Shown piece by piece: positions 14,133-15,604 of a DNA stretch of 34,681 nt. The stretch is from a virus. The position numbers were made by a program, and so were the translations under genes. The stretch spans positions 1 to 34,681 of the IMG/VR virus record IMGVR_UViG_3300035698_005119; one strand, written 5' to 3'. Within the stretch, counting starts at the first letter, position 1; each line of letters begins with the position of its first letter. The notes beneath the pieces are model-generated. The model saw only the letters and a list, made by a program, of their open reading frames with translations. It was not told the origin of the DNA and did no database searches.

Positions 14133-14435
14133 CTAAGCGGTCAGGTATTCTTTTTCATCAAGAACTTCAATGCGTTCTGACCCATCGTATTCTGTAATCT
14201 CAAATCGTGTCCCTTCAAGTAGCCATACGACTTCAGCTTGTCCCAATCCGCCAGCATAAGGCGCTTTATCTCCATAATGATCAAGAGGCGGTTCACCGTT
14301 CTTACCGTTACGAATCCATTCAACTAGAATAGGATCAAAGCAAACGTTATCATCATCGGCCCATGTCGACCAACCAGCACCAAAACCTGGCGAAAAGATC
14401 ACTGCAACACGTCCATTTTCTACCACTTTATCCAT
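14133..14435 (-). CDS. Conserved phage protein of unknown function (100 aa)
   Basis: A 100-residue protein beginning MDKVVENGRVAVIFSPGFGA. SPGFGAGWSTW, DPILVEWI and EGTRFEITEYDGSE are blocks I recall as widely conserved in phages; function unknown. Its start overlaps the stop of the next upstream gene by 8 bp. Soluble, no signal. Confidence 0.8.
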   Translation of the reverse strand: MDKVVENGRVAVIFSPGFGAGWSTWADDDNVCFDPILVEWIRNGKNGEPPLDHYGDKAPYAGGLGQAEVVWLLEGTRFEITEYDGSERIEVLDEKEYLTA

Positions 14436-14742
14436 TTTTATCTAACTCCGTCAAAGGATGATCTTTATATTTCTCTTGAAGCTCAAATGCTTTCAAGTCT
14501 CGTTTCCATTCATCTTGCTCAATGCGCGCAATGTGTCTTTTTAGTTTATACTTTACAATAGGACCAAAGAGTTTAAAATCATTTGGCATAGTCCATCTAT
14601 AAACAAGAGAAGGATTTCGATTTTTAACAACCTGATAATAATGATCATCGAGGCTGTATGCAACTAAATCTGCTTCTGCTCTAGCATGAAAAGAACTGCT
14701 ATCGTATAGTTCTTTTGAAGAGTAAATCAAGACTTTGACCAT
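14428..14742 (-). CDS. Hypothetical protein (104 aa)
   Basis: A 104-residue protein beginning MVKVLIYSSKELYDSSSFHA, with a charged helical C-terminal half. The chosen ATG has AAAGGATTATATT in front; a start six codons earlier lies between the RBS and tRNA-Ile and is rejected. No family is recognised. Confidence 0.65.
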   Translation of the reverse strand: MVKVLIYSSKELYDSSSFHARAEADLVAYSLDDHYYQVVKNRNPSLVYRWTMPNDFKLFGPIVKYKLKRHIARIEQDEWKRDLKAFELQEKYKDHPLTELDKNG

Positions 14743-14762
14743 AATATAATCCTTTGTCAATT

Positions 14763-14842: not shown

Positions 14843-14927
14843 TGGTGGGCAGGTGTGGACTCGAACCACTCCCTGTTACAGAACGGTTTTACAGTCCGCG
14901 TGTCGGAACCCCCGACTTTACCTGCCC
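14843..14927 (-). tRNA. tRNA-Tyr(GTA)
   Basis: 85-nt class II tRNA, encoded ACCA, anticodon loop CTGTAAA. The closing pair of the anticodon loop is an A-A mismatch. Confidence 0.92.
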
Positions 14928-15088: not shown

Positions 15089-15239
15089 ATTATACTTTCA
15101 GCTGCACTATTAAAGGAATCGAACCTTTATTTACCCCAAGGCTTTCAACTGGAATCGAACCAGTCTTATCGTTCCCATACCTTCCTTCGGATTTGAACCG
15201 ATCTTAATGATACCATCATAGTGCATGTGAAAGTATAAT
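15089..15239 (-). ncRNA. Multi-T-arm RNA, element A (151 nt)
   Basis: A 12-bp outer stem (15089-15100 with 15228-15239), a 2x2 internal loop and an 8-bp inner stem (15103-15110 with 15218-15225) enclose three hairpins at 15111-15129, 15148-15164 and 15187-15201. Read on the minus strand each has a 7-nt loop of exact tRNA T-loop form (TTCGATT, TTCGATT, TTCAAAT) on a 4-6 bp stem. No D-arm or anticodon arm fits between them. Transcription with the neighbouring tRNAs is inferred. Possible role: substrate or decoy for T-arm enzymes, or a tRNA-shaped RNA. Confidence 0.65.
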
Positions 15240-15360
15240 TCTATTTTCAGCTACACACTTAAAGATTGTTTCCTATCAGGATATTCTACGTTGGCAATCC
15301 GATGACAGATCGGGACCTTTTGAGTAGATCACACCCTAGTGTGTATGTGAAAACAGAATT
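15237..15360 (-). ncRNA. Sister structured RNA, element B (124 nt)
   Basis: It shares element A's scaffold: a 13-bp outer stem with one mismatch (15237-15249 with 15348-15360), the same 2x2 internal loop (GC against TG), and an 8-bp inner stem TACACACT/AGTGTGTA (15252-15259 with 15338-15345). Inside are GATTG/CAATC enclosing TCCT/AGGA, and CCGAT/ATCGG, but no T-loops. It directly follows the promoter region at 15495 in the transcript. Confidence 0.6.
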
Positions 15361-15494
15361 AACTATTTCTTCTAGGTTCTTGATTAAATCCCCTAGGACG
15401 CCCATTCGGTATTTGTTTATAGTGGGGTTACCGCAGTCTCGTTCCGCATATCCACTAGAGGAGATTGATATTATCTCTTCGTCCTCATATTAGT

Positions 15495-15533: not shown

Positions 15534-15604
15534 TGGTAGTATCAGAAAAAATCGAATTTTCCCTAGTTCCTTATGAGAGAACCGTCTGCACCAACAGTGA
15601 TACC
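15534..15604 (-). tRNA. tRNA-Met(CAT), short D-arm
   Basis: 71 nt, encoded ACCA, acceptor GGTATCA/TGATACT, anticodon loop CTCATAA, T-arm GAAAA TTCGATT TTTTC. The D-arm is only a 3-bp CTG/CAG stem. Confidence 0.8.

What the first reader, a model, noticed from the sequence alone, without database searches (positions are those of the whole stretch)
15089..15239. RNA with three T-arm hairpins on one closed scaffold
A 12-bp outer stem, 2x2 internal loop and 8-bp inner stem enclose three consecutive hairpins with exact tRNA T-loop sequences (TTCGATT, TTCGATT, TTCAAAT) at 15111-15129, 15148-15164 and 15187-15201. The 18-22 base spacers leave no room for D or anticodon arms, so this is not three tRNAs. 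T-arm hairpins are the known minimal substrates of TrmA (m5U54) and TruB (pseudouridine 55). A phage RNA with three could be a decoy, a modified regulatory RNA, or a nuclease bait. I know of no described phage RNA of this form.
Basis: partly seen in the sequence, partly recalled or inferred. Interest (0 to 1): 0.85.

Follow-up and report, generated by a model that had tools for sequence, protein, structure and literature searches.

The report
Phage tRNA-array RNA with three T-arms
Next to its tRNA genes a T4-like environmental phage encodes a small folded RNA carrying three copies of the arm by which tRNAs are recognised; it belongs to an undescribed family of about 30 such phage RNAs that share one closing stem, which suggests phages make stable tRNA look-alikes whose target is not yet known.

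Summary
Minus strand 15239-15089 (element A) has a 12-bp stem, 2x2 loop, 8-bp stem and three T-arms. It is not decayed tRNAs: a 194-kb phage contig has an 84% identical copy with all three T-arms.

A is one of a family. Directly upstream, element B uses the same stem without T-arms. A strict scan of 2.9 million viral contigs, with looser searches, gave 30 distinct RNAs on this stem, carrying 0 to 3 T-arms. 14 of 30 have a T-arm abutting the inner stem, like a tRNA acceptor/T minihelix (shuffles: mean 0.004). The stem covaries (12 of 21 pairs; 0/500 shuffles), and G-U wobbles mark the minus strand as the RNA (32 against 5). All 124 flanking tRNAs lie on the same strand; an rrn-like boxA precedes several members.

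Outside this family, other viral contigs carry closed multi-T-arm RNAs, and their T-arms are preceded by a D-loop-like TGG motif.

Best reading: stable tRNA-derived RNAs cut from tRNA precursors, each T-arm with its GG partner mimicking a tRNA elbow. The target is unknown. A pure TruB decoy is disfavoured: several members lack U55 or any T-arm. Nearest named relative: T4 RNAC, function unknown. No Rfam family matches.

The parts
15089..15239 (-). Element A: three-T-arm RNA on a closed scaffold, 151 nt
   Evidence: 84% identical homologue on a 194-kb phage contig
15228..15239 (-). Element A outer stem, 5' arm (ATTATACTTTCA)
15218..15225 (-). Element A inner stem, 5' arm (TGCACTAT); preceded by internal-loop CA at 15226-15227
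15187..15201 (-). T-arm 1 (TCGG-TTCAAAT-CCGA)
   Evidence: conserved in L345; weak by energy alone
15148..15164 (-). T-arm 2 (ACTGG-TTCGATT-CCAGT)
15111..15129 (-). T-arm 3 (TAAAGG-TTCGATT-CCTTTA), directly abutting the inner stem; one A-T to G-C compensatory change in L345
15103..15110 (-). Element A inner stem, 3' arm (ATAGTGCA); followed by internal-loop GC at 15101-15102
15089..15100 (-). Element A outer stem, 3' arm (TGAAAGTATAAT), ending exactly at the tRNA-Trp 5' end
15237..15360 (-). Element B: same scaffold (AATTCTGTTTTCA CA TACACACT ... AGTGTGTA GC TGAAAATAGAATT), no T-arm; overlaps A by 3 nt
   Evidence: homologue at G001:760-882, E 1e-15, and L453 3656-3775
15364..15490 (-). Conserved untranslated leader ('leader C') upstream of B: AGTGGATATGCGGAACGAGACTGCGGTAACCCCACT ... 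GGGCGTCCT
   Evidence: aligned with the same position in L404; same sequence between a promoter and a scaffold RNA in L453
15014..15088 (-). tRNA-Trp, begins at the base after element A

Best explanation
Element A is a small untranslated stable RNA, transcribed with the tRNA array (minus strand). It belongs to a family of tRNA-derived phage RNAs that share a ~22-bp terminal stem with a 2x2 internal loop. Shown: a common scaffold with covariation; RNA strand polarity; T-arm abutting the inner stem as in a tRNA acceptor/T minihelix; 0-3 T-arms per RNA; placement among same-strand tRNAs. Inferred: the two-turn stem is a processing site (double-strand cleavage by host RNase III, with RNase P at the next tRNA) that frees a closed, stable RNA. 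Inferred: each T-arm pairs by T-loop/D-loop contacts with the GG-containing spacer before it, so that A presents up to three tRNA elbows and occupies a host or phage factor that recognises tRNA elbows. The factor is unknown; RNase P, T-arm modification enzymes and the ribosomal L1 stalk are candidates. My confidence is about 0.9 for the RNA family, 0.5 for the processing role of the stem and 0.35 for the elbow-mimic role; the figure given below is for the whole.
For: Homologue with all three T-arms at 84% identity. 30 distinct scaffold RNAs. Covariation on 29 sequences: 12 of 21 pairs changed on both sides, 54 cells, 0/500 shuffles, slid versions collapse. G-U 32 against A-C 5. Canonical T-arm abutting the inner stem in 14 of 30, shuffled mean 0.004. 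124 same-strand and 0 opposite-strand tRNAs in the flanks; 9 of 30 end within 6 nt of a tRNA. rrn-like boxA (CGCTCTTTGA) within 140 nt upstream of 6 members, against 38 occurrences in 4.9 Mb of loci. Conserved promoter plus leader before the A and B homologues of one phage. Broader class: closing stem above the 99% control in 11 of 62 clusters (expected 0.6). TGG in 76% of 58 spacers against 46% shuffled, mostly 8-11 nt before the T-arm.
Against: No transcript or binding data. The three-T-arm fold is 2.9-4.3 kcal/mol above the minimum. Some scaffold RNAs, including B, have no T-arm, so the T-arms cannot be the whole function of the scaffold. Part of the scaffold's sequence conservation is built in by the search pattern. 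The TGG test includes related RNAs, so its z-score is inflated. Several members have no boxA, and no promoter matching the consensus was found near A in the window.
Confidence: 0.45

Rival explanations
1. Decoy or sponge: the T-arms are substrates that titrate T-arm enzymes (TruB, TrmA) or RNase P, to disturb host tRNA maturation.
For: T-loops in A are canonical (T54 T55 C56 R57 A58), fit the known minimal substrates, and are present in three copies; conserved in L345.
Against: Copy number is 0-3 on the same scaffold. Five members have a T-loop-like hairpin lacking U55 at the conserved position. The phage itself needs these enzymes for its 18 or more tRNAs.
Confidence: 0.2
2. DNA-level cassette: the stems are terminal inverted repeats of small mobile or recombining modules in tRNA arrays, and the RNA fold is incidental.
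For: Repeat ends are better conserved than the inserts; one contig (L443) holds three copies with different inserts; different modules sit on the same ends.
Against: Wobble pairs favour one strand 32 to 5; consistent orientation with the tRNAs; T-arm abutting the stem in 14 of 30; leader with boxA and promoter.
Confidence: 0.12
3. Decaying tandem tRNA genes: remnants of three tRNAs that kept only their T-arms.
For: Some family members keep recognisable tRNA pieces (D-arm TAGCGTAATGGTAGCGC in L527; class II variable arm and D-arm in L454/L498), so a tRNA origin is likely.
Against: Three T-arms, spacers and scaffold conserved at 84% with compensatory changes in another phage; closed by a dedicated covarying stem.
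Confidence: 0.06
4. A phage Y RNA: a tRNA-mimic RNA bound by a Ro60 (TROVE) protein through its terminal stem.
For: Similar plan: terminal stem plus tRNA-like module; weak YrlA match nearby, 14.7 bits against a cut-off of 69.
Against: No TROVE protein in 10 phage records carrying family members, three of them 195-201 kb, although the search finds it in a control genome.
Confidence: 0.04

Closest known systems
Bacteriophage T4 RNAC (species 1 RNA) and its neighbour RNAD
   Same: Small RNAs (139 and 119 nt against 151 and 124 here) encoded side by side in the tRNA cluster of a T4-like phage. RNAC has a canonical T-arm (CCGGG-TTCGAAT-CCCGG) at its 3' end against a weak terminal helix. Function unknown (PMC9697503, PMC3014915, PMC12685909).
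   Different: RNAC has one T-arm, not three; its terminal helix is short and has no 2x2-loop scaffold; no sequence similarity found; RNAD folds no better than shuffles.
Bacterial Y RNAs (YrlA, RF02553)
   Same: Terminal stem plus a tRNA-mimicking module (family knowledge, not tested here).
   Different: Far below the YrlA cut-off (14.7 against 69); no Ro60 in the phages; Y RNAs do not carry serial T-arms, as far as I know.
GOLLD and ROOL large phage RNAs
   Same: Structured phage RNAs of unknown function near tRNA islands (PMC12286853). In Lactobacillales prophages (L160 group) a closed T-arm RNA lies just downstream of a GOLLD RNA.
   Different: Much larger; no Rfam match of A or its homologue to either.
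tmRNA tRNA-like domain and tRNA acceptor/T minihelix
   Same: T-arm stacked on a closing stem, non-canonical insert in place of the anticodon arm.
   Different: No CCA end, no tag reading frame identified, long extended stem, several T-arms; ARAGORN calls no tmRNA.

Membership tests
T4 RNAC (species 1 RNA) | Small RNA encoded in the tRNA cluster of a T4-like phage | tested here: met
T4 RNAC (species 1 RNA) | T-arm at the 3' end abutting the terminal helix | tested here: met
T4 RNAC (species 1 RNA) | Sequence homology to T4 RNAC | tested here: not met
   No match to any named T4-like phage at this element by blastn beyond short chance or tRNA matches
T4 RNAC (species 1 RNA) | Accumulates as a discrete stable RNA | not testable with these tools
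   needs RNA from infected cells
tRNA | Acceptor, D, anticodon and T arms with CCA-ready 3' end | tested here: not met
YrlA / Y RNA | Match to the YrlA covariance model | tested here: not met
   14.7 bits against cut-off 69
YrlA / Y RNA | Partner Ro60 (TROVE) protein | tested here: not met
   0 of 10 phage records; host not testable
GOLLD / ROOL | Match to the Rfam model | tested here: not met
RNase III processing stem | About two turns of near-perfect helix closing the RNA | tested here: met
   20-22 bp plus 2x2 loop, covarying
RNase III processing stem | Cleavage by RNase III | not testable with these tools
   No phage RNase III in 10 records, so the enzyme would be the host's

The most novel reading that the evidence does not exclude
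Phages widely encode a class of 'poly-elbow' RNAs: closed RNAs built from repeated tRNA elbow modules (D-loop-like GG plus T-arm) on an acceptor-like stem. They would act as multivalent tRNA mimics during infection, with the scaffold family here as one well-delimited branch and T4 RNAC as a single-elbow cousin.
Probability: 0.35. Interest if true: 0.85.

Novelty: new variant of a known kind. Interest (0 to 1): 0.72.

Why it matters
T4 RNAC and RNAD have been known as phage small RNAs of unknown function for decades. A family with a defined scaffold and a variable number of T-arms supplies natural variants (0, 1, 2, 3 arms; with and without U55) that can separate processing, modification and elbow-binding roles. 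If the elbow-mimic reading holds, phages would be making multivalent tRNA look-alikes, a new way to engage the translation or tRNA-processing machinery.

Tried and rejected
Y RNA idea: YrlA match far below cut-off, no TROVE in phage records. Phage-encoded RNase III as processing enzyme: none in 10 records. LR756508 hit: its match is an ordinary tRNA-Pro. Genome-collection hit in Fredinandcohnia (L540): AT-rich sequence without the extended outer stem, taken as chance. Neighbouring protein 14428-14760 as a probe: no relatives. BLAST of scaffold members against named phages: no match for three queries, only short chance or tRNA matches for A and its homologue. Rfam: nothing but tRNAs and, in L160, GOLLD. 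Promoter scan of the window near A gave only chance-level hits. One script failed on a file name; one search printed its statistics before failing on a late row; one search failed and was redone.

Full report
What is there. The window is a complete IMG/VR record of 34,681 bases from a T4-like phage (ribonucleotide reductase, T4-type RNase H, DNA ligase) with 18 called tRNAs, all on the minus strand. It folds far better than shuffles (z -4.6), but the minimum-energy fold shows only the third T-arm. Enforcing all three costs 4.3 kcal/mol, and 2.9 in the homologue.

A second element on the same scaffold. Element B (15360-15237) has the same plan: outer stem AATTCTGTTTTCA/TGAAAATAGAATT, 2x2 loop CA/GC, inner stem TACACACT/AGTGTGTA. 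It has no T-arm. The motif pair around the 2x2 loop matches exactly only at A and B in the window. B also folds well beyond chance (z -4.5).

Homologues. A 194-kb viral contig (G001) carries an A homologue (84% identity, E 7e-41) and a B homologue (E 1e-15). All three T-arms, their spacers and the scaffold are kept. T-arm 3 shows an A-T to G-C compensatory change, and the outer stem differs on both sides while staying paired. A strict scan of 2.9 million viral contigs gave 30 stretches, and looser searches added more. After removing duplicates there are 30 distinct scaffold RNAs of 86-163 nt. The same pattern in 84,980 bacterial and archaeal genomes gave one hit that looks like chance. Named phages gave no match for three queries, and only short chance or tRNA matches for A and its homologue.

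Is the scaffold real as RNA? On 29 sequences, 12 of 21 pairs change on both sides; every measure beats 500 shuffles, and sliding one strand destroys the signal. Eight pairs never vary and say nothing, and the scan pattern itself fixed several of those columns. Wobble pairs occur 32 times on the tRNA strand against 5 times for the opposite strand, so the transcript is the minus strand in the window.

What the scaffold carries. By a strict count (at least 4 stem pairs, G53-C61), 12 RNAs have no canonical T-arm, 13 have one, 3 have two and 2 have three. In 14 of 30 a canonical T-arm sits within a few nt of the inner stem, against a shuffled mean of 0.004. Five others have a 7-nt loop at that place with U54 but without U55. 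Some members keep other tRNA pieces: a full D-arm in L527, class II-like D and variable arms in L454 and L498. The simplest reading is that these RNAs derive from tRNA genes.

Gene context. Within 1.2 kb of the 30 members there are 124 tRNAs on the same strand and none on the other; 9 members end within 6 nt of a tRNA. In G001 the A and B homologues each follow a similar promoter and leader containing CGCTCTTTGAAAATT, which matches the boxA antitermination element of rRNA operons (from general knowledge). CGCTCTTTGA occurs within 140 nt upstream of six members but only 38 times in 4.9 Mb of all loci. Leader C, just before B in the window, is conserved in L404 and L453.

A wider class. A complete scan for three closely spaced T-arms gave 104 stretches of viral contigs. 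Masking called tRNAs left 62 non-redundant clusters of two or more free T-arms. In 21 of them the sequence right after the last T-arm pairs with the sequence before the first better than 95% of mismatched controls (expected 3), and in 11 better than 99% (expected 0.6). Examples are L140, L254, L284, L287, L293, L294, L297, L307, L321 and L331. TGG occurs in 76% of 58 spacers (46% in shuffles), mostly 8-11 nt before the T-arm; GTG, of like composition, is not enriched. In tRNA the GG of the D-loop contacts positions 55 and 56 of the T-loop (general knowledge), so this is what an elbow mimic would need. Several of these RNAs are related to each other, so the statistic is optimistic.

How it most likely works. 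Shown: family, strand, scaffold, T-arm position, tRNA-array context. Inferred: excision by cutting of the long stem, and function as a multi-elbow tRNA mimic. Against a simple TruB or TrmA decoy: members without U55 or without any T-arm. Against a Y RNA: no Ro60 in ten phage records. Against decay: conservation of all parts in G001.

Comparison. The nearest named RNA is T4 RNAC (species 1): it too is a tRNA-cluster RNA of about 140 nt, with a 3' T-arm against a terminal helix. Papers held state that RNAC and RNAD have no known function (PMC9697503, PMC3014915, PMC12685909). The RNA here works like RNAC in plan but is not shown to be homologous.

Noticed in passing
window 15364-15490, minus strand: Conserved untranslated leader (GCGGAACGAGACTGCGGTAACCCCAC ... 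GGGCGTCCT) before scaffold RNAs, also in L404 and L453; no Rfam match.
   Followed up: partly
window 15534-15604, minus strand: tRNA-Met-like gene (anticodon CAT, encoded CCA) not called by ARAGORN or Rfam; a similar gene precedes leader C in L453.
   Followed up: partly
window 14847-14927, minus strand: Class II tRNA, anticodon GTA (tRNA-Tyr by sequence), seen by Rfam only as a sub-threshold tRNA-Sec.
   Followed up: no
L345 6655-7245: A tRNA gene directly after the A homologue appears interrupted by an HNH-type homing endonuclease gene.
   Followed up: no
L302, L276, L281, L262, L270, L309, L323 and others, right after a tRNA: Recurrent two-T-arm element GGTTCGATTCC-GACTCGTTGGTCGAGGTCTGGTGAGAAGGGA-..-GGTTCGATTCC, probably the 5' part of a larger unnamed phage RNA; no Rfam match in those tested.
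   Followed up: partly
L160 261-346 and about 15 similar loci, minus strand: Closed T-arm RNA (AGCGTGT/ACACGCT) just downstream of GOLLD RNA and a tRNA in Lactobacillales prophages.
   Followed up: partly
upstream of L345, L409/L531, L405, L475, L536, L538; window about 13447 minus: rrn-like boxA (CGCTCTTTGAAAATT) in leaders of phage tRNA and ncRNA operons, suggesting antitermination of stable-RNA transcription.
   Followed up: partly
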